DNA from: an uncultured Holdemania sp.
GTDB taxonomy: Bacteria; Bacillota_I; Bacilli_A; Erysipelotrichales; Erysipelotrichaceae
Assembly (NCBI GenBank): GCA_947037125.1
Contig: CAMQTJ010000015.1
Coordinates: forward strand, 1-38,938
Reading direction: 5' to 3'
DNA: 38,938 bases
The notes under the pieces were generated by a model that was not told the origin of the DNA, made no database searches, and saw only the letters and a list, made by a program, of their open reading frames with translations. Below, in pieces: positions 2,170 through 38,219 of the stretch (positions are counted from its first letter, which is position 1; the number at the start of each line of letters is the position of its first letter). A program made the translations under genes and the position numbers.

Positions 2170-3258
2170 ATGAAAAAGTATTTTTTTACAAGTGAATCAG
2201 TAACAAGTGGACATCCAGATAAAATCTGTGATTATATCGCAGATCATATTTTAGACGCTGCAATTGCAGGCGACCCTTATAGTAAAATGGCTGTTGAGGC
2301 TACAATTAAAGACGATTTTATTTTAATTTATGGAGAAGCTAATACAAAAACTGTTATTGATTATGCAAAAATTGCGAAAGATGTTGTTAAGTCAATTGGT
2401 TATGATGAAAAATATGAAGTATTAGTTAAAGTTAACAAACAATCAAGTGAAATATGTAACGCTGTTGATGGTGCAGAATTAAGTGCTGGAGACCAAGGTA
2501 TTATGTTTGGTTATGCAACTCGTGAATCAAAATCATTAATGCCTTTATCAATTGATATGGCTCATATGTTAGCTAAAAAACTTGAAGAAGTTCGTCGTGG
2601 TAATGATTTAATCAAACCTGATGGAAAAACGCAAGTTACAGTTGAATATAATGGTTATGAAATAGTAAGAGTTGATACAATTGTTGTTTCTACTCAACAT
2701 AGTAAAGACATTACTCAAAGTGAATTAAAGAAAATCATTATGGAACAAGTTATCGCTCCAGTTGTTGATCAAAAATATATTGATGATGAAACTAAGTTTT
2801 TAATCAATCCAAGTGGTAGTTTTGTTGTAGGTGGTTCATTTGGTGATAGTGGTACAACAGGTAGAAAAATTGTAGTTGATACTTATGGTGGTCATGCTCC
2901 AATTGGTGGAGGGTGTTTTTCTAGTAAAGATGCTACTAAAGTAGACCGTAGTGCTGCATATTATGCACGTTATGTTTGTAAGAATATGGTTGCACATAAT
3001 TTTTGTGATAAATGTGAAATTCAACTATCATATGCAATTGGTGAGCCAAGACCTTTATCAATTAAGATAGATACTTTTAATACTAGTAAATACTCAAATA
3101 AAGAATTATTAGATATTGTTAATGAAAACTTTGATTTTAGTGTTAAAAATATTATTGATGAATTAGATTTAAGAAAACCAATTTATGCAACAACGACTAA
3201 TTATGGTCATTTTGGTAAACCTTATTTACCATGGGAAAAAATTAAAGAATTAAAATAA
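2170..3258 (+). CDS. metK: S-adenosylmethionine synthetase
   Basis: Makes S-adenosylmethionine from methionine and ATP in the cytosol. 362 residues, somewhat shorter than the usual 380-400. An in-frame TTG lies upstream at 2134, but AGAGGA at 2158-2163 places the start at ATG 2170, giving the standard N-terminus with FTSESVTSGHPDKICD. Other conserved blocks are AGDQGIMFGYATRES, GRKIVVDTYGG, KDATKVDRSAAYYARYV and YGHFGKPYLPWEK. Several normally strict positions differ: INPSGSFVVGGSFGDSGTTGRK in place of the usual NP.GRFV.GGP.GD.GLTGRK, and GGGCFSSKD in place of GGGAFSGKD. This marks a divergent MetK branch. The riboswitch upstream strongly supports the function. A terminator follows at once. 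Confidence 0.95.
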   Translation: MKKYFFTSESVTSGHPDKICDYIADHILDAAIAGDPYSKMAVEATIKDDFILIYGEANTKTVIDYAKIAKDVVKSIGYDEKYEVLVKVNKQSSEICNAVDGAELSAGDQGIMFGYATRESKSLMPLSIDMAHMLAKKLEEVRRGNDLIKPDGKTQVTVEYNGYEIVRVDTIVVSTQHSKDITQSELKKIIMEQVIAPVVDQKYIDDETKFLINPSGSFVVGGSFGDSGTTGRKIVVDTYGGHAPIGGGCFSSKDATKVDRSAAYYARYVCKNMVAHNFCDKCEIQLSYAIGEPRPLSIKIDTFNTSKYSNKELLDIVNENFDFSVKNIIDELDLRKPIYATTTNYGHFGKPYLPWEKIKELK

Positions 3259-3282
3259 AAATCGTTTCGACGATTTTTTTCT
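3257..3282 (+). terminator. metK terminator
   Basis: Nine-base-pair stem AAAAATCGT (3257-3265) with ACGATTTTT (3270-3278) closed by a stable TTCG tetraloop and followed by T residues. It overlaps the metK stop codon. Confidence 0.88.
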
Positions 3283-3354
3283 TACCTTAGTATCATTTAA
3301 TAAACTATTTTAATAAATAAGTAATTTTTTCAAATAGTTAAAATTAAGCAAATA

Positions 3355-3363
3355 TGTTATAAT
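3355..3363 (+). promoter_or_regulatory. Extended -10 promoter of ygiQ
   Basis: TGTTATAAT (3355-3363), an extended -10 with a perfect TATAAT hexamer; the -35 is weak (TAGTTA at 3335-3340, 17-base spacer). The ygiQ start ATG follows 24 bases later. Confidence 0.65.
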
Positions 3364-3387
3364 CAAATAAAGAAATGAGGAATTTTT

Positions 3388-5997
3388 ATGGCTTTTTTAC
3401 CAGTATCAAAACAAGAAATGTTAAATAGAGGTTACACACAACCGGATTTTGTCTATGTAAGTGGTGATGCTTATGTTGATCATCCGTCTTTTGGACCTGC
3501 AATTATTTGCAAAACACTAGAGGCTTTTGGATATACAGTATGTATGATTGCACAACCAGATTGGAATGATTTAGAGGCGTTTAAAGTATTTGGAGAACCA
3601 AGACTTGGATTTTTAGTTTCAAGTGGTAATATAGATTCAATGGTTAATCACTATTCTGTTAATAAAAGAAGACGTGACAAAGATAGTTATTCAGACAATG
3701 GTGAAATGGGTAAACGCCCGGATAGAGCGACTATTGTTTATAGTCAAAAGATTCGTGAGTGTTATAAAGACAGTGCCATAATTATTGGTGGAATCGAAGC
3801 ATCACTTAGAAGATTTTCTCATTATGATTATTGGGATGATAAAGTAAGACAAAGTATTATTATGGATTCTAATGCTGATATCGTTTTATATGGTATGGGT
3901 GAAAATACGGTTGTTGAAGTTGCGGATGCCTTAAATAGTGGATTATCAATTGGTGATATTACTTATATTCGTGGTAGTAGTTATAAAACTAAAAGCATCG
4001 AACATATTTATGAATATGAAATGTTACCATCATATGAGGAAGTTAAAACTGATAAGGTTAAATACTGTGAGAGTTTTACTACACAATATGAAAACACGGA
4101 TGCTATTACAGCTAATGTTTTAATTGAACCTTATAAAGGTTGGTATGTAGTAGTAAACCCACCTGCATTACCTTTAACACGTGAGCAAATGGATTTCACT
4201 TATTCTTTAGATTTTGAAAGAAAATTCCACCCAATGTATACATATATTCCAGCAATTGAAGAAGTTCAATTTTCGATTATATCAAATCGTGGATGTTTTG
4301 GTGCTTGCTCATTTTGCGCACTAACTTTTCATCAAGGTCGTACAATATCTTCAAGATCAAAAGAATCAATTGTTGAAGAAGCTAAAAAAATAGTTCAATA
4401 TGATAATTTTAAAGGGTATATTCATGATGTTGGTGGACCTACTGCGAATTTTTATCATCCAAGTTGTGATAAACAATTAAAGCATGGAGTTTGTAAAAAA
4501 CAACAGTGTTTAGATCCTAAACCTTGTCGTAGTTTAAAAGTTGATCATACTGATTACTTAAATATATTAAGAGAATTACGTGCGATACCTAAAGTTAAAA
4601 AAGTATTTGTAAGATCTGGTGTTCGTTATGATTATTTACTTCACGATAAAGATGAAACATTCTTTGAGGAGTTAGTTCAACATCATATTTCTGGTCAATT
4701 AAAAGTTGCTCCAGAACATGTTTCTAATAAAGTATTAGGATATATGGGTAAATGTAATCATGAACTTTATGAAAAATTTAGAACTAAATATGAAAAATTA
4801 AATGAAAAATATGATAAGAAACAATTTTTAGTTCCTTATTTAATGAGTTCACATCCAGGTAGTGAAATTGAAGATGCTATTGAATTGGCTGAGTATTTAA
4901 AAATGATTGGACATGTTCCACAACAAGTTCAAGATTTTTATCCAACTCCGGCAACTCTATCAACGTGCATGTATTACACAGGGCTACATCCAATAACTAT
5001 GGAGAGTGTTTATGTTGCTAAGTCTTTTGAAGAAAAGTTAAAACAAAGAGTTTTAATGCAATATAATTACCCTAAAAATTATGAAATAGTATATAAAACT
5101 TTAATGGAAGCTAATCGTTCTGATTTAATTGGTTTCGGAAAAAATTGCTTGATTAGACCAAAACAAAGTGTTAATCGTTACCAAAATCAGCAAAGTAAAC
5201 TTTATACTGAAGATAAGAATGAAGAGGGTATTCGTCCAAGTATTGCACCTCCAAAAGGAGATCGTCAATATTCTACTAAAAACATTCAAACTGCACGTTA
5301 TCAAAAAGATAGTAAATCTTATAATGGGCGTAATAATAACAGTGATGATCGCTACAAAAAAAATGATAGAACAAGTAGTTCAAATGATACACGTTCTAGT
5401 AATGATCGTAACCAAAATGGAAATTATTCAAAAACAGCAAGAGCTGATAACCGAAATGATGCGCGTAATCAAAATGATAATAATTCAAATTCATCACGTT
5501 TTAGTAATGATCGTAATCAAAATGTAAATTATTCAAAAACGGCTAGAGCTGATAACAGAAATGATGCACGTAATCAAAAAGATAACACAACAAATTCATC
5601 ACGTCCAAGTAATAATCGTTTTGATCGTAATCAAAAAGATAACACGTCAAATTCATCACGTCCAAGTAATACTCGTTTTGATCGTAATCAAAATGATAAC
5701 TATTCAAAAGGTCCAAGAACTGATAACAGAACTGATTCACGTAATCAAAAAGATAACACGTCAAATTCATCACGTCCAAGTAATAATCGTTTTGATCGTA
5801 ATCAAAATGATAGTTATTCAAAAGCACCAAGAACTGATTCACGTAATCAAAAAGATAACACGTCAAATTCATCACGTCCAAGTAATAACCGTGATGATCG
5901 TTATCAAAAAGATAGTAGATCAAATTCTGGACGTTCAAACGGAAACGATTTTAACAATGTAAGTCATAATAGAAATAAGGGAGGTAGAAATAGATGA
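3388..5997 (+). CDS. ygiQ: YgiQ-family radical SAM protein with long repetitive disordered tail
   Basis: 869 residues. The N-terminus (FLPVSKQEMLNRGY, DFVYVSGDAYVDHPSFGP) is characteristic of YgiQ (UPF0313). A cobalamin-binding-like region is followed by the radical SAM cluster motif RGCFGACSFCAL (CxxxCxxC) near residue 304, then a DUF3362-type C-terminal region ending near CLIRP at about residue 590. The family's reaction is unknown. The last ~280 residues are unusual: low-complexity Asn/Asp/Ser/Arg/Gln with near-identical 19-residue repeats of the form NQKDNTSNSSRPSNNRFDR. Most homologues have only a short basic tail. Start ATG follows GAGG with suitable spacing. It overlaps the next gene by four bases (ATGA), so the two are translationally coupled. 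Confidence 0.9.
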   Translation: MAFLPVSKQEMLNRGYTQPDFVYVSGDAYVDHPSFGPAIICKTLEAFGYTVCMIAQPDWNDLEAFKVFGEPRLGFLVSSGNIDSMVNHYSVNKRRRDKDSYSDNGEMGKRPDRATIVYSQKIRECYKDSAIIIGGIEASLRRFSHYDYWDDKVRQSIIMDSNADIVLYGMGENTVVEVADALNSGLSIGDITYIRGSSYKTKSIEHIYEYEMLPSYEEVKTDKVKYCESFTTQYENTDAITANVLIEPYKGWYVVVNPPALPLTREQMDFTYSLDFERKFHPMYTYIPAIEEVQFSIISNRGCFGACSFCALTFHQGRTISSRSKESIVEEAKKIVQYDNFKGYIHDVGGPTANFYHPSCDKQLKHGVCKKQQCLDPKPCRSLKVDHTDYLNILRELRAIPKVKKVFVRSGVRYDYLLHDKDETFFEELVQHHISGQLKVAPEHVSNKVLGYMGKCNHELYEKFRTKYEKLNEKYDKKQFLVPYLMSSHPGSEIEDAIELAEYLKMIGHVPQQVQDFYPTPATLSTCMYYTGLHPITMESVYVAKSFEEKLKQRVLMQYNYPKNYEIVYKTLMEANRSDLIGFGKNCLIRPKQSVNRYQNQQSKLYTEDKNEEGIRPSIAPPKGDRQYSTKNIQTARYQKDSKSYNGRNNNSDDRYKKNDRTSSSNDTRSSNDRNQNGNYSKTARADNRNDARNQNDNNSNSSRFSNDRNQNVNYSKTARADNRNDARNQKDNTTNSSRPSNNRFDRNQKDNTSNSSRPSNTRFDRNQNDNYSKGPRTDNRTDSRNQKDNTSNSSRPSNNRFDRNQNDSYSKAPRTDSRNQKDNTSNSSRPSNNRDDRYQKDSRSNSGRSNGNDFNNVSHNRNKGGRNR
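5278..5990 (+). repeat. In-frame tandem repeats encoding the YgiQ tail
   Basis: Imperfect repeats within the coding frame. The clearest unit is 57 bp (19 codons), with copies at 5572-5628, 5629-5685, 5743-5799 and 5845-5901, almost identical at DNA level. Degenerate copies fill the rest. All units are multiples of three, so length changes keep the frame. Confidence 0.9.
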
Positions 5998-6824
5998 TAA
6001 TTAAAAATGAAATAGCCCAAATTGAATTTAAAAATGCGGGTGCAGAAATTACTAGTTTTAAATTAATAAATAATGATACTGAATTTATGTGGCAAGGTGA
6101 TGCAAAATATTGGTCAGGAAGAAATCCAATTTTATTTCCAATGGTAGGTAGTACTTATGATAAAATATTACATATTGATGGTAAAGAATTTACTATGGAT
6201 AATCATGGTTTTTGTCGCAAAGTTGATTTTAAATGTGAAGGCAGTACTGAAAACAGTATTACTTTTTCTTATGAAGCAAATGATATAACTTTAAAACAAT
6301 ATCCATATGATTTTAAAATTAGTGTAACTTATACATTAATTGGTGCTAAATGTTTAATAAGTTATGATATAGATAATCGTGGTAATGATGAGATGCCTTT
6401 TAATTTCGGATTGCATCCTGCATTTAATTGTCCAATTGATCCTACAAAGAAATTTACTGATTATAGTGTTGATTTTGCATGTATTGAAAATCAAGATTTT
6501 AATCATGTACTAAATAATGAAGATAAAATTAATCTTGATCATGAATTATTTGTTGCTAATCCAACATTATTTTTCAAGAATACTAATTCACCATATATTA
6601 CTTTAACTGATGGTAAATATAGTGTTAAAGTTGAATGTGCTGGTTATCGTTATTTAGCAATATGGACACCTAGCGATGCACCATTTGTATGTTTAGAGCC
6701 ATGGCATTCTAAAGGTGACTTTGAAAAAGTAGTTTGTGAATTTAAAGATCGTGAAGGTACTTTGATTTTAAAACCTAAAACATCTTTTACAACTCAATAT
6801 AGTATTGAGATTTCTTGTAAATAG
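5994..6824 (+). CDS. Aldose 1-epimerase family protein (LacX-like)
   Basis: 276 residues of the galactose-mutarotase-like beta-sandwich fold. Recognisable blocks are GAEITSFK, FMWQGDAKYW, RNPILFPMVG, DNHGFCRK (first active-site His), FGLHPAFNCP (second active-site His) and CLEPWHSKGD (the catalytic Glu region). These positions match the LacX/YeaD-like branch, which interconverts sugar anomers. The specific sugar is not known, and some members act on phosphorylated sugars. The start ATG overlaps the ygiQ stop by four bases, and AGGGAGG sits 10-16 bases upstream inside ygiQ. No signal peptide, so cytosolic. Confidence 0.88.
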   Translation: MIIKNEIAQIEFKNAGAEITSFKLINNDTEFMWQGDAKYWSGRNPILFPMVGSTYDKILHIDGKEFTMDNHGFCRKVDFKCEGSTENSITFSYEANDITLKQYPYDFKISVTYTLIGAKCLISYDIDNRGNDEMPFNFGLHPAFNCPIDPTKKFTDYSVDFACIENQDFNHVLNNEDKINLDHELFVANPTLFFKNTNSPYITLTDGKYSVKVECAGYRYLAIWTPSDAPFVCLEPWHSKGDFEKVVCEFKDREGTLILKPKTSFTTQYSIEISCK

Positions 6825-29223: not shown

Positions 29224-30195
29224 TTAGCTAATGTACTTGTTTGTTGCTTTGAATAGTGTTTTACGTATTTCATCTGTAACATATTGTGGCTCAATTACAG
29301 TGCAGTAGTTGATGAATTGAAATGCCCAATAGACTATTCCATCAACTGATGAGTTTATCGTAGCTGTAAAGCTGTGTGCATCTTTATATTCAATTATTGT
29401 GTCAGTTGAAAATCTTTCGATTACTTGATCTAATATTTCATTGTCACAAACAACTTTAAATGTCTCAATTTTACCTGCATACATATATACTTGATTTTTT
29501 ACATATTCATATGGATTAAAATTATTGCTTGCACTGTCTTGTCTTTCATCGATAATTTCCATGTTTGTAATTTTGTCTAAACGATAATGATTGATAGAGT
29601 TGCGATATTCATTAAAGCAAATTAAGTAAAAATTATTTTCACTTTCCACAATATGATAAGGACTAACTTTATATGTTTTTCCATTAGTTACAAGTTGTTT
29701 ATTCATATTATATTTTAAGTATTCAAATTCAATTTTTTTGTTTTTACTAATTGCATTTTTAATTAATTCAATATTAGTAAAAAACAGTTGGCTATTATGT
29801 TTATTACCATTTGATAAATAAATATTTGAAGTAAATTCATCACGGTCATAAATACTTTGTGACTCACATAACTTTTTAATTAATTTTTTAGTGTCTTCTT
29901 CACTTATATGACTTGAAGAATAGATTGAATTACATAACAGTTCAATTTCACTCTTATCAAATTCACGTTGCTTTAAATAACACCCCTTGTTATTTTCTTT
30001 ATATGTTTCAATATTATAGCCATAAACTTCCACAAGTAAAGAGACTGTTGTATATATTGTTCTTCTTTCGATTAAAATGCCATATTCACTTTCAATAAAT
30101 TCTGCTATCTGTTTTGCTGTTAAGATATGGTTTTTATCACTGTATTTCTTTAGTATGTTTAAAATAAGTATGTCATTTGATTGTTTTCTTGCCAT
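29224..30195 (-). CDS. WYL-domain transcriptional regulator, divergent from Wadjet
   Basis: 323 residues. N-terminal winged helix (~1-65: DILILNILKKYSDKNHILTA, QIAEFIESEYGILIERRTIY), a central WYL domain (~145-215: KIEFEYLKYN, KTYKVSPYHIVESENNFYLI, INHYRLDKI) and a C-terminal WCX extension (~240-323, KVVCDNEILDQVIERF). WYL proteins of this layout (BrxR, CapW) repress defence operons and are thought to respond to nucleic-acid ligands. The ATG has AAGGAG eight bases upstream. The gene is transcribed away from jetABCD with a 203-base shared regulatory region, and its own promoter holds a palindrome, so autoregulation and control of the Wadjet operon are likely but inferred. Confidence 0.9.
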   Translation of the reverse strand: MARKQSNDILILNILKKYSDKNHILTAKQIAEFIESEYGILIERRTIYTTVSLLVEVYGYNIETYKENNKGCYLKQREFDKSEIELLCNSIYSSSHISEEDTKKLIKKLCESQSIYDRDEFTSNIYLSNGNKHNSQLFFTNIELIKNAISKNKKIEFEYLKYNMNKQLVTNGKTYKVSPYHIVESENNFYLICFNEYRNSINHYRLDKITNMEIIDERQDSASNNFNPYEYVKNQVYMYAGKIETFKVVCDNEILDQVIERFSTDTIIEYKDAHSFTATINSSVDGIVYWAFQFINYCTVIEPQYVTDEIRKTLFKATNKYIS

Positions 30196-30215
30196 ATTCG
30201 TATCTCCTTATATAT

Positions 30216-30244
30216 ATTGTAATGCATGTGCATTATTTTGTACA
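30216..30244 (-). promoter_or_regulatory. Promoter of the WYL gene with embedded operator
   Basis: Minus strand: -35 TGTACA (30244-30239), exactly 17 bases, -10 TACAAT (30221-30216). The spacer and -10 edge are occupied by the perfect palindrome TAATGCA-TG-TGCATTA (30220-30235), placed where a dimeric repressor would block polymerase. Confidence 0.65.
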
Positions 30245-30263: not shown

Positions 30264-30308
30264 GTTACATTTAATATGATTATGATATAATAATATATAT
30301 TATGTAAC
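30264..30308 (+). promoter_or_regulatory. Promoter of jetABCD flanked by an inverted repeat
   Basis: Extended -10 TGATATAAT (30283-30291). GTTACAT (30264-30270) overlaps the -35 zone and its exact inverse ATGTAAC (30302-30308) lies just past the expected start. A second TATAAT at 30334-30339 is an alternative -10. The leader to jetA is 60-100 bases. Confidence 0.55.
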
Positions 30309-30398
30309 ATATTTTATAGGAGTATTGTAGGATTATAATATATTTAGTCTAAAAAAATGCACTTTAAAATATAAAATATATTTAAGAAGAGGTATTGA

Positions 30399-31886
30399 AT
30401 GAAAATATATGATAAAATGCTTAAACCAATTAACGAAATTAATTATTTAAGAGCTGAAAATGTTGAAAGATATCGGGTTATTATCAGGTATTTTTTTAAT
30501 GAATATGAAAATATCAATTATTGGTTATTTAAAGAAGAAATATTTGAACAAATGTGTGAAACGAATTTGTTTGATGAATATACACTAGATAAGTGTCAAC
30601 AAGACTTAAATGCTTTAGTTGAATGGGGTAATTTAACGGCATTGCAAGATAGTTCATATACGACAAGTATTGAAGATTTTAAAAATCGTAAATATCGATA
30701 TCAAATTAGTGATTATAGTGTTGAAATTGAAAGGCTTGTCATTAAACTTGAACACCTTAATGTTGAAGGGGCTTCACTAGAGCCAACTTTGTTACAAAGA
30801 ATCAGGGAATCAATTTTTAAGCTTAAAACGATGTTGCATGAAAGTGATGAAGATGTTTATGCTTGTTTTGATTCATTAAGTAATGATTTTAAATTACTTA
30901 ATCATAGTTATCAAGATTATATTAAAATGCTTAGTAGTGCAAAAGCTGAAGAACTTATGAAAAGTACTGATTTTTTAATGTATAAGGATAAATTAATTAA
31001 GTATTTAAGAACTTTTGTGAAAAGTCTTCAAGAAAATTCATTGATGATTGAATCATATTTGAATAATATTAGTGATGAAGAAATTGCAATAATCATCAAT
31101 AAGTCAACTAACTATATTTATAATATTCCTCGTCTGAATAGTGATGCTACATATGATGATTTTCATCAAAAGATTAATGGCCAATATAAAAGTATTTATA
31201 AATGGTTTGTAGGTGTAAATGGAATTAACGAAGTAAGTCGTATGTATACGATTACTAATGATATAATTCGAAAGATTACATTTTATGCTCAACAAATTGC
31301 AGAGTTTCACAATATTGGTGTAAATAAAAAACAAGAATATGCTCATATTGCGAATATCTTTTTAAAGTGTGAAAATATTAATCAGGCCCATGAATTATCA
31401 AGTCTTGTTTTTGGTGTTGATAGTTGTTTGCATTTTAAAAATATCAAAGATAAGAGTAGTGATAGCATTGATGATAGTATTTATGATTGCGATAGTGAAC
31501 TGATAAAACTTGAAAGTAGAACAAGAAAACTGACAACTAAAAGTGTTAGAAAATCGATAGTTGATTTTGAATTTGAAAAGAATGCACATAAAATACAATT
31601 AGAAAATGAAATGGAAAATAATAAGAAACTGATTGAAAAACTGATTGTTGATGGTACCATTGATTTTAATAATTTAGGTGAAATTGATTCATATACAAGA
31701 AAAACTATACTATCGTGGCTTAATTTAGCGATGAGTAGTGTAGATAAACAGGCGAAAAATCAGTTTAATCAACAATTTTATATTGATGATAGTGATAGTG
31801 ATAAATATATTACAATCAAGTGTATTGATGGTAATTTTACAATGCCACACTTTAAGATAGTATTTAAGAATGGAGGATTGTTATGA
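30399..31886 (+). CDS. jetA: Wadjet type II protein JetA (DUF2397/TIGR02677)
   Basis: 495 residues. The N-terminus INEINYLRAENVERYRVIIR, FFNEYENINYWLFKEEIFEQ and the TTSIEDFKNRKYRYQISDYS, EGASLEPTLLQRI blocks are those of DUF2397 proteins. JetA is the kleisin-like subunit (MksF/MukF analogue) that bridges the SMC heads and recruits JetB. It is mostly alpha-helical with no enzyme motif. ATG 30399 follows AGAGG with six-base spacing. The stop TGA overlaps the jetB ATG by four bases (ATGA). First gene of the operon, running away from the WYL regulator. Confidence 0.92.
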   Translation: MKIYDKMLKPINEINYLRAENVERYRVIIRYFFNEYENINYWLFKEEIFEQMCETNLFDEYTLDKCQQDLNALVEWGNLTALQDSSYTTSIEDFKNRKYRYQISDYSVEIERLVIKLEHLNVEGASLEPTLLQRIRESIFKLKTMLHESDEDVYACFDSLSNDFKLLNHSYQDYIKMLSSAKAEELMKSTDFLMYKDKLIKYLRTFVKSLQENSLMIESYLNNISDEEIAIIINKSTNYIYNIPRLNSDATYDDFHQKINGQYKSIYKWFVGVNGINEVSRMYTITNDIIRKITFYAQQIAEFHNIGVNKKQEYAHIANIFLKCENINQAHELSSLVFGVDSCLHFKNIKDKSSDSIDDSIYDCDSELIKLESRTRKLTTKSVRKSIVDFEFEKNAHKIQLENEMENNKKLIEKLIVDGTIDFNNLGEIDSYTRKTILSWLNLAMSSVDKQAKNQFNQQFYIDDSDSDKYITIKCIDGNFTMPHFKIVFKNGGLL

Positions 31887-32995
31887 GTTCATTTAATTCA
31901 TTGATGAGTCAAAAATTTATCCTTAAAGCTAAAGATTTTGATCAATATTATTTAGTTAAAGATAATTTAAAGACAATTAAAAAAGATTATCTTGATAAAT
32001 TTGGTTATGGTATTTATATTAATCAATCTTTAATTAAATTAGAAAAAGTGCCTGGAAAACCTGAACCATGGATGGGAATATTAGATTTTAGTTCGATTGA
32101 AGAATATCAAATGTTATGTTATTTATTGATGTTTTTAGAGGATATGGAAATAGCTAATCAGTTTGTATTATCTAATTTATTAGAATTTATTCAAGTGAAA
32201 TTTGTTGATAATCCAATAACATTTAATGATTTTAGCGTGAGAAAAAAATTGATTAGAGTCGTTAAATATGCAATTAAAATAGGAATTATTATTAATAATG
32301 CAGGTGATGAAGATAAATTTTCACAAAATATCCAAACAGAGGTTTTATTTGAAAATACTGGTGTATCGCGTTATTTTTTAAGGTCATTTGTTACTGATAT
32401 CTTACAATGGGATAATGTAAGTGACTTTTTTGATAATCAATATTTAAATATGGATGAAGATCGTGGAATTGTAAGAACACATAGAGTGTATCGTCGTTTG
32501 TTATTATCACCGTGTATTTATCGTAGTGATGGTAATGATGAGGACTTTAACTATATAAGAAATTATCGTAATCGTATTGAAAAAGATTTTCAAAAATTAT
32601 TTTCATGTGATCTTCATGTTTATAAATCTTGTGCTTTTTTAGTTATTGATGAAGATGTGAAAATTGGTAAATTTATTGATAATAAAAATGCTATGGATGA
32701 TATATTATTATTGTTTAATTATGAGGTTATTAAACGTGTTAAAAATAATAGTTTGAAAATTAATAGTATTGATAAAATAATTGTCAATGAATATATGATT
32801 AATTTAATTATTGATTATGTAATTAAAAACAATTTTGATTATATTCCTAAAGCATATCAAGTAAATAATAATTTAAGTAGTGATGTTTTGAATCGTTTAA
32901 TTGTTTTAGGTTATGTAACACTTAATGATGAAATATATACAATTAATCCTATTGTGAAAATATTGGGTGGTAATTATGAAATGGAGAAAAGTTAA
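31883..32995 (+). CDS. jetB: Wadjet type II protein JetB (DUF2398/TIGR02678)
   Basis: 370 residues. DUF2398 signatures are clear: RTHRVYRRLLLSPCIYR, FNYIRNYRNRIEKDFQKLF and CDLHVYKSCAFLVI in the C-terminal half, and tandem winged-helix-like segments before. JetB is the KITE subunit (MukE analogue) that binds the JetA kleisin. AATGGAGGA (ribosome site) lies inside the jetA end. The TAA overlaps the jetC ATG by one base, so stoichiometric translation is likely. Confidence 0.92.
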   Translation: MSSFNSLMSQKFILKAKDFDQYYLVKDNLKTIKKDYLDKFGYGIYINQSLIKLEKVPGKPEPWMGILDFSSIEEYQMLCYLLMFLEDMEIANQFVLSNLLEFIQVKFVDNPITFNDFSVRKKLIRVVKYAIKIGIIINNAGDEDKFSQNIQTEVLFENTGVSRYFLRSFVTDILQWDNVSDFFDNQYLNMDEDRGIVRTHRVYRRLLLSPCIYRSDGNDEDFNYIRNYRNRIEKDFQKLFSCDLHVYKSCAFLVIDEDVKIGKFIDNKNAMDDILLLFNYEVIKRVKNNSLKINSIDKIIVNEYMINLIIDYVIKNNFDYIPKAYQVNNNLSSDVLNRLIVLGYVTLNDEIYTINPIVKILGGNYEMEKS

Positions 32996-35900
32996 TGAGT
33001 GATAATAGATGGCATTTAAATAAGTTAGGGCTAGTTGATTTTTGGTTTTATACTGATGAAGTTTTTAATTTTGATAATGGTCATATGATGCTTAGGGGTT
33101 CTAATGGGTCTGGTAAGTCAGTAACACTTCAAAGTTTTATACCGTTATTACTTGATGGAAACAAGGCTAGTGAACGTTTAGATCCTTTTGGTACTAGATC
33201 ACGTAAACTTGAAAATTACTTGTTAGATGAAAATAGTGAGCGTGATGATCGTATAGGTTATTTGTATATTGAATTTAAAAAAAGTGATCTTGAAGTATAT
33301 AAAACAATTGGGATGGGAATACATGCTAGAAAAAACAAACCAATTGATTGTTGGTATTTTGTTATTGAAGATAATCAAAGAATCAATATTGATTTTAAAC
33401 TAATTAATAATGGCTTTACATTAACTAAGCAGCAATTAAAGAATCAAATTGTAAATCAGGTAATTGATAATCAAAAAGAATATATGGCTAAAGTAAATAA
33501 ATCATTGTTTGGTTTTGAAAGTATTGATGATTATAAAGAAATGATAAATTTATTATTACAGTTAAGAACACCTAAATTATCAAATTCATTAAAACCATCA
33601 AAGCTAAATGAAATGTTATCTAATTCATTACAACCATTATCACAAGATGATTTAAGACCAATGTCAGAAGCGATTGCGAATATGGATGCTTTAAGTGAAC
33701 AATTAGAAATATTGAATAAATCATATGTTTCAGCTAAAAGAATCGATGAAATATATAGTAAATATAATGAAGCAGTATTAAGTGATAAAAACAAAAAATA
33801 TCAAGAAGTTTTAAAAGCTTTAAATGAAACAAAAAGAAAAGTAATTGAAAATGCCAATAAGTTAACTAAAGATGAAAATAATTTATTAGAAATTAATGAT
33901 AGTATTAATCAATTACAAAATGAATTCATAAAAAATGAAAATGAAAAAGATGTTTTAGATTCATCGGATGTTATGAAAATGGTTAAGGACTTAGCACAAA
34001 TAAAAATAGAGATTAAACAAAGTATTGAAAGATTAAACAATAAAACTACAATAAGTGATAAAAAGCAGGATAAGCTAATTGATTTACACAATGATTTAAA
34101 ACAAATCCAAGATAAATTATTTACTACTCAAAAATTAATGGATGAGAAAATCAGTTTACTTAATGAAGTAAATGATGAAGTTAATTTCATTGATCATGAT
34201 TTGATTGTACTTGATATAAATGACAATACAAAAGAGCTTAATTTTGATTATTCTACAGGATTAATCAATGATGAACTAAAATTAATTAATGATGGAATTG
34301 ATAAATTAAATATCGTAGATACTTTAAAATCAATAGTTGATGAATTTATTAATCGTTATGATATTTTTGTTGATAAACAAAAAAAGGTAAATCATGAATT
34401 AATTGAAGTTAGTGATAATTTAGCGTTAAGTAAAAGTGAATATTTTGAAAATATGGTTGAATATAGTAATAATAATCAATTTATTAAATTTAGTGAAGAG
34501 CAATTAAATTTAATCATGGATTATATTAATCAAGTAAATGAATTAGCTGTATTTAAACTTGTTCAAAATATTGCCTCTTTACAAGATAAAAAATTGGCAC
34601 AACAAATCATTGAGAAAAAACTAGAACTACAAACTCTTAAAAATTTAATCAATGATCAAAAAGCTGAATTGAATAGTTTAATTAATAGCGATAGCATCGA
34701 TTTTTTAATGGACGAGCAAACCATAATTAATCGTAACTATTTAAAACAGAATAATATTGAATTTATGCCTTTATATAAATGTATTGAATTTAATGAAATT
34801 AATAGTGATGTACATGATTTACTTGAAGAAGTATTATCACAATTAAAATTATTAAATGTTGTTTTAATTGATAATAAATACAAAGATATGGTTATTGAAA
34901 ATGGTAATTGTGATTCATATATATTTATTGATGATTTCAGTTCAGATTTTAAAATTATGGTTGATTTAAATAATAATATTGATGATATTGTTTTATATAT
35001 ATTTAAGGTGCTAAAGATTACATTTAATGATAATTTAATTATTGAAGACAATTATTTAGTAGCAAATAATATTATGATAACTATGGATAATGATAATTTA
35101 TCAAAATTTATTGGACAAGCTAATCGTTTAAGACAAAAAGAAATTAAAATTAATGAGTTAAAACAAATAATCTTAGTAAAACAAAATGAAATTGATGAAA
35201 AGACAATTGTAGTGATTGATTTAGAAAATAGTCGTAAGCTAATTAATCAAGAAGTTACATTGGTGATAAGTTTTGATAATATCAATGAGTTTAATAAGCA
35301 AATTTATAATTTAGGGCTTGATATTAAGCATTATGATAATGAAATTGAAAATATTACTAGTCAAATAAGTATTAAAACAAATGAATTAGAAATCGTTAAT
35401 ATCCAAGTAATTGAAATTGGAAATAAATATAAATTAGTTTGTAATAAGACTGTCTTTATTAATAGACGTGATAATTTAATTGAATATAAAAATATTTTAG
35501 ATAATTTATTTGGTTTACATCAAAAATGTTGTAATGAATTGGGTAATATTAATAGTTTTAACGTTCAAATACAAGATGCTACAAGTGACATTGATGAAAT
35601 AAATGCTGATATATATCAAATTAAAAATCTTATTGATATAAATCAAAATAAGGTTAAAGTAATTGATGAAAATATTCAAAAAGTTGATGGCGAAAATATT
35701 AAAGAAAGACTACATTTTTTAATTAGTCGTTTAAAACAAATACCTGAGATTACAAATGAAAAATATCAAATCAAGGGTAAGCTTGAAAATGAGATTGATG
35801 CAAGTGTAAAAAAGAATATAGAACTTAATAATGAAGTAGATAAAAGATTAATAGCACATAATATTTATCAAAAAGTCTTAAATGATGAACTTAATTTAGG

Positions 35901-36951
35901 TTATGTTTTTAGTGATGGAGAACAAGTTGTTTTAAATAAGTTAAGTGGCACAAAAAGTATTAATGATTTAAACAATGATTTGCAACGTGTTATTCGTGAT
36001 AATAGTGTTCAACTTAGTGATTATCAATTAAATATGAATTACATTTTAGCAAGTGATCAAATTGATAATATTAGTTCTAGAATTGATTTAAGTGCAAAGT
36101 ATCAAAGTAAAAAAATTAACTTTAAAACTTTATTAGAAAATATTAAAAGTGATGTATCAATGCAAGAAACACTTTTAAATGAAAGTGATAAAATAATCTT
36201 TGAAGATATACTAGTAAATAACATCAGTAAAAAAATCAGACAACATATCCATACAAGTAAGAAATGGGTAGATAATATGAATAAATATATGGGTGCAATG
36301 GATACTAGTAGTGGACTTAAATTATCGCTTAAATGGGCTAGTAAAAAAGTTGTGAATGAAGATGAAATGGATGCAACCAAATTAGTTGAATTACTACAAA
36401 AAGATGCTTTTTTATTAAAGAATGAAGATTTAAATAAGATATCTGCCCACTTTAGAGGTAAGATAGCACGTAGTAAAGAACTTTTAAAAGCTGATAATTC
36501 TCTAAAGAGTTTTCATGAAATTATGAGTGATGTTATGGATTATCGAAATTGGTTTGAATTTAAGATCATGTATCAAAAAACAAATGAAAGTAAAAAAGAG
36601 TTAACAAACAATAATTTCTTTGCTTTTAGTGGTGGAGAAAAAGCAATGTCGATGTATGCACCTTTATTTTCAAGTGTTGCAGCCAAGTTTGAAAGTGCAA
36701 ATGATGATTGTCCTTTAATAATTGTTTTAGATGAAGCATTTGCCGGAGTTGATGAAAGAAATATTAATAACATGTTTGATTTGATTTCTAAGTTTAAATT
36801 TGATTTTATTATGAATTCTCAAGTATTATGGGGAGATTATGCAAGTGTTAAATCATTGGCAATCTATGAATTGTTTAGATTAGAAAATGCACGTTATGTA
36901 ACCATTTTAGCGTATAATTGGAATGGTTCAACTAGAAAATTGTTAAGTTAA
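32995..36951 (+). CDS. jetC: Wadjet type II SMC-like ATPase JetC (TIGR02680)
   Basis: 1,318 residues. Walker A RGSNGSGKSVT (Lys at ~41), ABC signature FSGGEKAMSMY near 1212 and Walker B IIVLDEAFAGVDE (Asp-Glu at ~1246-1247) form the split ATPase head. Between them lie long coiled coils (about 265-560 and 700-1120) rich in Asn, Ile, Lys and Glu, and a small globular part around 575-710 (MPLYKCIEFNEI, LLNVVLIDNKYKD) at the place of the TIGR02680 hinge or elbow domain. JetC is thought to extrude DNA loops and recognise small circular DNA, so that JetD cuts it. All ATPase residues look intact. One-base overlaps with jetB and jetD. Confidence 0.95.
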   Translation: MSDNRWHLNKLGLVDFWFYTDEVFNFDNGHMMLRGSNGSGKSVTLQSFIPLLLDGNKASERLDPFGTRSRKLENYLLDENSERDDRIGYLYIEFKKSDLEVYKTIGMGIHARKNKPIDCWYFVIEDNQRINIDFKLINNGFTLTKQQLKNQIVNQVIDNQKEYMAKVNKSLFGFESIDDYKEMINLLLQLRTPKLSNSLKPSKLNEMLSNSLQPLSQDDLRPMSEAIANMDALSEQLEILNKSYVSAKRIDEIYSKYNEAVLSDKNKKYQEVLKALNETKRKVIENANKLTKDENNLLEINDSINQLQNEFIKNENEKDVLDSSDVMKMVKDLAQIKIEIKQSIERLNNKTTISDKKQDKLIDLHNDLKQIQDKLFTTQKLMDEKISLLNEVNDEVNFIDHDLIVLDINDNTKELNFDYSTGLINDELKLINDGIDKLNIVDTLKSIVDEFINRYDIFVDKQKKVNHELIEVSDNLALSKSEYFENMVEYSNNNQFIKFSEEQLNLIMDYINQVNELAVFKLVQNIASLQDKKLAQQIIEKKLELQTLKNLINDQKAELNSLINSDSIDFLMDEQTIINRNYLKQNNIEFMPLYKCIEFNEINSDVHDLLEEVLSQLKLLNVVLIDNKYKDMVIENGNCDSYIFIDDFSSDFKIMVDLNNNIDDIVLYIFKVLKITFNDNLIIEDNYLVANNIMITMDNDNLSKFIGQANRLRQKEIKINELKQIILVKQNEIDEKTIVVIDLENSRKLINQEVTLVISFDNINEFNKQIYNLGLDIKHYDNEIENITSQISIKTNELEIVNIQVIEIGNKYKLVCNKTVFINRRDNLIEYKNILDNLFGLHQKCCNELGNINSFNVQIQDATSDIDEINADIYQIKNLIDINQNKVKVIDENIQKVDGENIKERLHFLISRLKQIPEITNEKYQIKGKLENEIDASVKKNIELNNEVDKRLIAHNIYQKVLNDELNLGYVFSDGEQVVLNKLSGTKSINDLNNDLQRVIRDNSVQLSDYQLNMNYILASDQIDNISSRIDLSAKYQSKKINFKTLLENIKSDVSMQETLLNESDKIIFEDILVNNISKKIRQHIHTSKKWVDNMNKYMGAMDTSSGLKLSLKWASKKVVNEDEMDATKLVELLQKDAFLLKNEDLNKISAHFRGKIARSKELLKADNSLKSFHEIMSDVMDYRNWFEFKIMYQKTNESKKELTNNNFFAFSGGEKAMSMYAPLFSSVAAKFESANDDCPLIIVLDEAFAGVDERNINNMFDLISKFKFDFIMNSQVLWGDYASVKSLAIYELFRLENARYVTILAYNWNGSTRKLLS

Positions 36952-38219
36952 TGGATAATAATATTGCTTTAGCTAATTACTTATTAAGTAAAAAAGGCTT
37001 CGAAATATTTTTAGATAAGTGCAAAAAACAATATCAAAAATTTGGTAGTTATAAAGGCGTTGTGCAAATGATTTTAGTTGATGATAATAAAGAAGATTTA
37101 CTTGGCTTTTTTGGTTATCATAATACTAATAGCTTAAAAATAAATAAAAAAATGATTGATAAAGCAATAGCGAATTCTAAATTTGATGGTGCTAATTTTG
37201 ATGAAGTCTTAAAAATAATATTTACTGATTTAAAAGCAAATAAAGATGTTATCAGTGAATTAAATCAATTAAGAACAATCTATATAAAACAATGTTTAAT
37301 TAATTATCAAAATAGTCAATTTTATGATTATTATATAAATAATCAAATAAGTTTGATGAGTACTTTTAATTATGAATATAGTAAAAATAAAAAAAGCTGT
37401 AAAGAATTAATTAATAATTTGGCACTAGCTTATAATAATTTACCTAGTTATCAAAATGAAATAAAGCTAATTTCATTTTATTCTAATGAATTATTTTCTA
37501 ATTCACATTTACTTGATGATAATAATAAATTAGCTAATATGTTTTTTAATGCATTGTTATATCAAACAAATACAAAAAGTATTAGTACTTTAAATGATAA
37601 AATGGAAGTTTATTTAAAATGTGGTTTGATTCAAGATGAAGTATCTAACTTTAGTATGATTTGTCATTTATTACCAATAAATGATTCAAAGAAAATGATT
37701 AGTTATCAAATGTTTTATGATACATATGAACCACTTAATTTATCACTGGCAAACCTTAGAAACATTGATGGATTTTCAGATGATATTGAAAAGGTTTTTG
37801 TTGTTGAAAATCCTTCTGTTTTTATTATGTTGATGTATTATATTAAAAATAATAAGATTAATGTTGGTCTAATATGTACAGGTGGACAAATTAATAAATC
37901 TGGCTATGAAATTATTGATTTATGTGTAAACGCTAATTATCAAATTTATTATGCAGGGGATTTTGATCCTGAAGGTTTATTGATTGCGAATAAGCTTGTA
38001 GAAAAATATAATTCAATTATCTTATGGGGTTATACTTTAGCTAATTATTATAAAACTAATCCTACAATTACAATAAGTGATAAAAGATTAAGTCAATTAG
38101 ATAATTGTTTAAATACTCAAACAGTAAAGATTAAACAATTATTACAAGAGAATAAAAAAGCAGGGTATCAAGAAAGCTTGCTTGATTATTATAAACAAGG
38201 GCTTAATAATCTTGTTTAG
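36951..38219 (+). CDS. jetD: Wadjet type II nuclease subunit JetD (DUF3323 + DUF2399, Toprim)
   Basis: 422 residues. The N-terminal ~260 residues correspond to DUF3323, and the C-terminal DUF2399 part has a Toprim fold: metal-binding Glu in FVVENPSVFIML (~285) and the DxD motif in YYAGDFDPEGLLIA (Asp ~337 and ~339), with ICTGGQ between. This is the topoisomerase-VI-like nuclease that cuts plasmid DNA after loop extrusion by JetABC. Catalytic positions are intact, so the system is predicted active. Start overlaps the jetC stop (TAATG). No terminator follows before the nitroreductase gene 46 bases later. Confidence 0.93.
   Translation: MDNNIALANYLLSKKGFEIFLDKCKKQYQKFGSYKGVVQMILVDDNKEDLLGFFGYHNTNSLKINKKMIDKAIANSKFDGANFDEVLKIIFTDLKANKDVISELNQLRTIYIKQCLINYQNSQFYDYYINNQISLMSTFNYEYSKNKKSCKELINNLALAYNNLPSYQNEIKLISFYSNELFSNSHLLDDNNKLANMFFNALLYQTNTKSISTLNDKMEVYLKCGLIQDEVSNFSMICHLLPINDSKKMISYQMFYDTYEPLNLSLANLRNIDGFSDDIEKVFVVENPSVFIMLMYYIKNNKINVGLICTGGQINKSGYEIIDLCVNANYQIYYAGDFDPEGLLIANKLVEKYNSIILWGYTLANYYKTNPTITISDKRLSQLDNCLNTQTVKIKQLLQENKKAGYQESLLDYYKQGLNNLV

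What the first reader, a model, noticed from the sequence alone, without database searches (positions are those of the whole stretch)
30216..30244. Perfect palindrome inside the WYL promoter: likely autoregulatory operator
TAATGCA-TG-TGCATTA (30220-30235) fits exactly into the 17-base spacer and the edge of the -10 of the minus-strand promoter TGTACA-17-TACAAT. A homodimeric winged-helix repressor bound there would stop its own transcription. A partial half-site (AATGCA) recurs near 30356, close to the start of jetA.
Basis: partly seen in the sequence, partly recalled or inferred. Interest (0 to 1): 0.62.

Follow-up and report, generated by a model that had tools for sequence, protein, structure and literature searches.

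The report
Conserved WYL operator, misplaced palindrome
The palindrome in front of this defence-system regulator gene is real but is not kept in related genes; a different, overlapping DNA element is kept and is the better candidate for where the regulator binds to control itself.

Summary
The palindrome TAATGCA-TG-TGCATTA is exactly at 30220-30235, inside TGTACA-17-TACAAT, ahead of a WYL regulator divergent from a type II Wadjet operon. It is only mildly unusual (1.7-4.1% of shuffled intergenics hold one with at least 2 G/C per arm; 61% without that condition) and is not conserved: in register, 0 of 51 relatives keep 6 or 7 of its 7 pairs. Conserved instead is an overlapping 18-bp element, TGTRC-AAAAAANN-TGNCA, found unsupervised upstream of WYL relatives (log-likelihood 350 versus 60-74 in shuffles; cross-validated 44 of 73 upstreams versus 3 of 1291 control segments). 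In the window it is 30227-30244, minus strand, over the -35 and most of the spacer. Negative autoregulation stays likely, through this element. Where relatives lie back to back with a HIRAN gene, that promoter lacks a -35 and has its -10 exactly 10 nt from the element (24 of 34; largest mode in 500 shuffles 10), as for WYL activators (PafBC, SiwR). Wadjet lies behind such a promoter in two other genomes; the window's jetA lacks that geometry. No binding was tested.

The parts
30220..30235 (.).
30227..30244 (-). Conserved 18-bp element TGTAC-AAAATAAT-GCACA, proposed WYL operator
   Evidence: Motif trained without the window, best place of the intergenic (score 14.4; 99th percentile of 2000 shuffles 10.8); shared with three same-genus relatives
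30239..30244 (-). -35 TGTACA of the WYL promoter, coincides with the left arm of the element
30216..30221 (-). -10 TACAAT of the WYL promoter, 5 nt from the element (4-7 nt in 43 of 60 sites)
30204..30209 (-). Ribosome binding site AAGGAG of the WYL gene
   Evidence: read from the sequence
29224..30195 (-). WYL regulator, 323 aa (wHTH, WYL, probable WCX); recognition helix about residues 44-56
   Evidence: Pfam WYL E 5e-12; WCX below cut-off; predicted wHTH with local pLDDT about 70-87 in a model that is poor overall
30264..30291 (+). Likeliest jetA promoter, GTTACA-16-TATAAT with TG before the -10
   Evidence: consensus scan only
30345..30362 (+). Weak second element-like site TAGTCTAAAAAAATGCAC before jetA
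   Evidence: score 3.6, not above shuffles as a whole site; its right 12 bases match at 1 mismatch, 5 of 2000 shuffles
30399..38219 (+). jetA (30399-31886), jetB (31883-32995), jetC (32995-36951), jetD (36951-38219): type II Wadjet
   Evidence: PADLOC best hits JetA2, JetB2, JetC2, JetD2; Pfam

Best explanation
The WYL protein, probably as a dimer, binds the 18-bp element at 30227-30244 (TGTAC-AAAATAAT-GCACA on the minus strand) and limits its own transcription by covering the -35 and most of the spacer of its promoter. Shown here: the element is conserved in sequence and place upstream of WYL relatives and is not a general feature of the surrounding DNA. Inferred: that the WYL protein is what binds, that it binds as a dimer, that the effect in the WYL direction is repression, and that a ligand of the WYL domain switches it. 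The palindrome at 30220-30235 is most likely a by-product that shares only its right part (30227-30235) with the element.
For: Unsupervised motif on 73 non-redundant relatives without the window: log-likelihood 350.3 against 60.3-74.2 in ten shuffles. Two-fold cross-validation: 44 of 73 upstreams against 3 of 1291 control segments at score 10. Window site is the best of the intergenic and 49-50 nt before the start codon, as in most relatives. Same-genus relatives share TGnnCAAAATnnTGnACATG and the -10. Element present at score 10 in 55 of 73 relatives with recognition helix RRT[LIVF]Y and in 0 of 9 without; G235, with a changed helix (RQTLKKHF), carries a perfect dyad of the same length and other letters, TGTTAACTTATTTTAACA. 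WYL-side -10 lies 4-7 nt away in 43 of 60.
Against: No binding data. In the 51 relatives the two arms pair hardly more than column composition predicts, so dimer symmetry is not shown. The window site ranks second in the whole window, and shuffled windows reach 10.5-19.5. The palindrome overlaps the element, so a double site is not excluded; one same-genus relative, L004, has a palindrome of its own over the -10. The 55/73 versus 0/9 count is not corrected for relatedness or redundancy.
Confidence: 0.6

Rival explanations
1. One reading: the operator is the palindrome 30220-30235 itself, bound by a WYL homodimer that represses its own promoter.
For: Perfect 7-bp arms between -35 and -10; CapW sites are imperfect palindromes over the -10 (PMC9122588, passages read); intergenic chance about 2-4% with a G/C condition.
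Against: Not conserved in 51 relatives nor in three same-genus relatives; chance 61% without the G/C condition; no excess of palindromes upstream of relatives (15 of 82, shuffled mean 11.4, maximum 17).
Confidence: 0.12
2. The WYL protein is an activator: bound to the conserved element it helps RNA polymerase start at a promoter without a good -35, as PafBC and SiwR do, rather than repressing.
For: Towards the HIRAN gene in relatives the -10 is exactly 10 nt from the element in 24 of 34 (largest mode in 500 shuffles 10) and 30 of 34 have at most 2 of 6 bases of a -35. SiwR is a WYL homodimer that activates from between -35 and -10 (PMC10693628).
Against: In the WYL direction the distance varies (mode 7 in 12 of 33; largest mode in shuffles 9) and a moderate -35 exists (25 of 34 with 3 or more of 6 bases). 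In the window the place 10 nt out on the jetA side reads GAATTT, not TAnnnT.
Confidence: 0.2
3. The window site is a chance resemblance and neither it nor the palindrome is a WYL operator here; the WYL gene beside jetA is a chance neighbour.
For: The window site is weaker than many relatives' (14.2 against up to 24.4); a random sequence of this size and composition can yield one as good; WYL was found beside jetA in only 2 of 24 order-level JetA loci, window included.
Against: It lies at the conserved distance from start codon and -10 and is shared with three same-genus relatives.
Confidence: 0.08

Closest known systems
CapW, WYL repressor of CBASS (PMC9122588, passages read)
   Same: WYL regulator divergent from or next to a defence operon; site inside the promoter; proposed autorepression
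   Different: CapW sites are imperfect palindromes over the -10; here the conserved element covers the -35 and spacer, with other letters. No PDB chain matches this protein by sequence at E 0.01
BrxR, WYL repressor of BREX (PMC9122589 and PMC9122601, passages read)
   Same: Acinetobacter BrxR site overlaps the -35; dimer on a pseudo-palindrome; BrxR homologues are reported near Wadjet among other systems
   Different: BrxR half-sites of 10-11 bp are 5 bp apart; here 5-bp arms are 8 bp apart with an A-tract between
SiwR and PafBC, WYL activators of actinobacteria (PMC10693628 and PMC6789036, passages read)
   Same: Site between -35 and -10; the fixed 10-nt distance to a -35-less promoter on the HIRAN side of relatives resembles this class
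   Different: Different motif and phylum; the window's jetA side does not show the fixed distance; activation not shown

Membership tests
WYL transcription factors (wHTH-WYL-WCX) | WYL domain | tested here: met
   Pfam WYL, 46.1 bits, cut-off 21.8
WYL transcription factors (wHTH-WYL-WCX) | N-terminal winged HTH | tested here: met
   No Pfam HTH above cut-off, but predicted three helices and a two-strand wing, residues 2-74, local pLDDT about 70-87 over residues 11-80; model poor overall, mean 50.7
WYL transcription factors (wHTH-WYL-WCX) | C-terminal WCX domain | tested here: inconclusive
   Pfam WCX 19.1 bits, below cut-off 23.9
CapW/BrxR-type autorepressor of a defence operon | Operator in the regulator's own promoter | tested here: met
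   By conservation only
CapW/BrxR-type autorepressor of a defence operon | Palindromic operator for a dimer | tested here: inconclusive
   Clear dyads in some relatives (L047, L072, L077, G235), weak symmetry overall
CapW/BrxR-type autorepressor of a defence operon | Binding and repression shown | not testable with these tools
   needs protein and reporter
PafBC/SiwR-type WYL activator | Fixed distance from the site to a -35-less promoter | tested here: inconclusive
   Met on the HIRAN side of relatives (24 of 34); not met on the window's jetA side
Wadjet type II | jetA, jetB, jetC and jetD in order | tested here: met

The most novel reading that the evidence does not exclude
A WYL regulator widespread in this bacterial family works in two directions from one 18-bp element: it shuts its own promoter by covering the -35 and switches on a back-to-back promoter without a -35 (usually of a HIRAN gene) from a fixed 10-nt distance, in the manner of PafBC/SiwR. 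Wadjet operons have been placed behind this switch more than once: in G235 behind HIRAN, in G172 without a WYL gene seen beside it, and in the window, which lacks HIRAN and the fixed distance.
Probability: 0.3. Interest if true: 0.6.

Novelty: new member of a known kind. Interest (0 to 1): 0.4.

Why it matters
How Wadjet operons are switched on is little described: my full-text searches for WYL + Wadjet + promoter (1 paper, which names Wadjet once), WYL domain + jetABCD (0) and Wadjet + transcriptional regulation + repressor (2 papers, listing seen) showed no operator for one. The conserved element gives an 18-bp site that can be tested in many relatives, and the fixed 10-nt promoter makes repression versus activation by these WYL proteins directly testable.

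Tried and rejected
Palindrome as operator: set aside because it is not conserved. Excess of any palindrome upstream of relatives: 15 of 82 against a shuffled mean of 11.4, maximum 17: no signal. Symmetry of the new element: little beyond column composition, so no proven dyad is claimed. Second element before jetA: whole-site score too low, kept as a weak lead. Regulon in the own genome: 82 places at up to 3 mismatches against 63 for the reversed pattern: not enough to call targets. Second WYL gene of the genome (L106): upstream printed, not scored. WYL beside jetA in general: 2 of 24 order-level JetA loci, window included; of the other 22, L111 has only 48 bp upstream, L037 189 bp, and L040 is cut. 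Phylum search for more JetA: 8 of 392, all already held. Viral contigs: no relative. Plasmids: 9 records at 26-32% identity, not followed. Genome contigs: 1 distant relative, L032. Structure: model poor overall, so no fold search was made.

Choice of rows: the 83 upstreams are L002-L032, L034 and L046-L097 without L084. They are the better-scoring matches plus L032, not all of them: several listed matches at about E 1e-60 to 1e-53 and all weaker ones were not fetched; G133, G127 and G121 were left out (contig edge or partial). Repeat copies (L001, L033, L084, L098-L105) were dropped. Near-identical upstreams were reduced to 74, 73 without the window. The symmetry test used 52 non-redundant sites of score 6 or more with full flanks, 51 without the window. 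46 of 83 have a HIRAN match in the stretch; 45 were used (L025, 1.4 kb away, left out), 34 after the score and redundancy filters; an earlier version with 35 loci not filtered for redundancy gave 25. The -10 was chosen by best match to TATAAT, in shuffles as well.

Full report
Observation. With at least 2 G/C per arm such a palindrome occurs in 1.7-4.1% of shuffled intergenics, depending on the gap allowed; without that condition in 61%. It is real and mildly unusual, but not compelling by itself.

Setting. The gene at 29224-30195 (minus) encodes a WYL-domain protein; 30399-38219 is jetABCD of a type II Wadjet. 186 of 272 genomes of the family hold a WYL relative at E 1e-10, JetA only 13 of 272, and 24 of 315 at order level at E 1e-30. 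Only the window and G235 were found to have the WYL gene beside jetA. In 46 of the 83 WYL loci studied a small HIRAN-domain gene lies in the fetched stretch, mostly back to back with the WYL gene (confirmed by Pfam for two). The window's genome has no HIRAN match. In G235 the order is WYL, then divergent HIRAN, jetA, jetB, jetC.

The conserved element. 83 upstream regions were collected. A mixture-model motif search found TGTRC-AAAAAANN-TGNCA. Trained on 73 regions without the window, its log-likelihood is 350.3; ten dinucleotide shuffles give 60.3 to 74.2. In two-fold cross-validation 44 of 73 regions and 3 of 1291 control segments reach score 10. In the window the matrix that did not see it picks 30227-30244, minus strand, as the best place of the intergenic (14.4; 99th percentile of 2000 shuffles 10.8, maximum 15.9). 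Over the entire window it ranks second, and shuffled windows reach 10.5-19.5, so the claim rests on position as well as score.

Test of the palindrome. In three same-genus relatives the aligned region lacks that symmetry, while TGnnCAAAATnnTGnACATG is shared by all four. One of them (L004) has a palindrome of its own, TTGTACA-TGG-TGTACAA, 2-3 bp further on, so a second site over the -10 cannot be excluded.

Who binds. The recognition helix of the predicted wHTH is about residues 44-56. Of 73 relatives with RRT[LIVF]Y there, 55 have the element at score 10 or more; of 9 without, none. These counts are not corrected for relatedness or redundancy. G235, with RQTLKKHF, carries the perfect dyad TGTTAACTTATTTTAACA. 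This ties the element to the WYL protein, by inference.

How it acts. Towards the WYL gene the -10 is mostly 4-7 nt from the element (43 of 60) and a moderate -35 falls on or near the element's left arm; occlusion is the simplest reading. Towards HIRAN the -10 is at exactly 10 nt in 24 of 34 (largest mode in 500 shuffles 10), and 30 of 34 have at most 2 of 6 bases of a -35 at 16-18 nt. That is the layout of an activator that stands in for the -35. Read by eye, G235 (GGGAGTTTGT, then TATAAT) and G172 (CTTTAGCTGT, then TAAACT) keep the 10 nt in front of their Wadjet genes. The G172 site scores 23.5, reached by 0 of 300 shuffles, and no WYL gene was seen beside it. Of 22 JetA upstreams scanned (24 minus one truncated, one too short), the window (2 of 300 shuffles) and G172 are the only clear ones. 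In the window the place 10 nt out reads GAATTT, so jetA does not keep the layout; its likeliest promoter is GTTACA-16-TATAAT at 30264-30291, which puts the element about 60 bp upstream of its start. What a WYL dimer would do from there cannot be said.

Literature, passages read. CapW binds imperfect palindromes over the -10 and represses in both directions (PMC9122588). Acinetobacter BrxR binds a pseudo-palindrome over the -35, half-sites 5 nt apart (PMC9122589). E. fergusonii BrxR binds 11-bp repeats with a 5-bp spacer, and BrxR homologues lie near Wadjet among other systems (PMC9122601). SiwR is a WYL homodimer that activates from a 19-bp imperfect palindrome between -35 and -10 (PMC10693628). 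PafBC activates from the non-palindromic RecA-NDp motif (PMC6789036). A search for HIRAN with WYL domain gave one paper, which lists them as separate neighbours of another protein (PMC9503650).

Verdict. Autoregulation of the WYL gene: likely. The palindrome as its operator: unlikely. The finding is ordinary in kind; the conserved element and the fixed HIRAN-side geometry are the interesting result.

Noticed in passing
L039 (G172), 178-195 bp upstream of jetA: A near-consensus copy of the element (TGTACAAAAAACCTGACA, score 23.5, 0 of 300 shuffles) before a Wadjet operon with no WYL gene seen beside it; the genome has WYL relatives elsewhere.
   Followed up: partly
L034 (G235), around 2364-2368: The jetA of the only other WYL-Wadjet locus is split by an in-frame TAA.
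   Followed up: no
window 30264-30308: An imperfect inverted repeat (GTTACATTTAATAT / ATATATTATGTAAC, 79% complementary) brackets the -10 of the likeliest jetA promoter; a possible jetA operator.
   Followed up: no
G000:C71:10631-10648 (L119): The only other place in the genome within 1 mismatch of the element; it lies between two divergent ORFs.
   Followed up: partly
L109 (G304), upstream of jetA: A HIRAN gene and one further ORF run in the jetA direction just before jetA, in another family of the order.
   Followed up: no
L103 (G011), 2539-6246: HIRAN gene divergent from the WYL relative is followed by a 1116-aa ORF that I did not identify.
   Followed up: no
L044 (G077), 136-153 bp upstream of jetA: A symmetric element-like site TGTACAAAATCATGTACA (score 10.0, 27 of 300 shuffles).
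   Followed up: no
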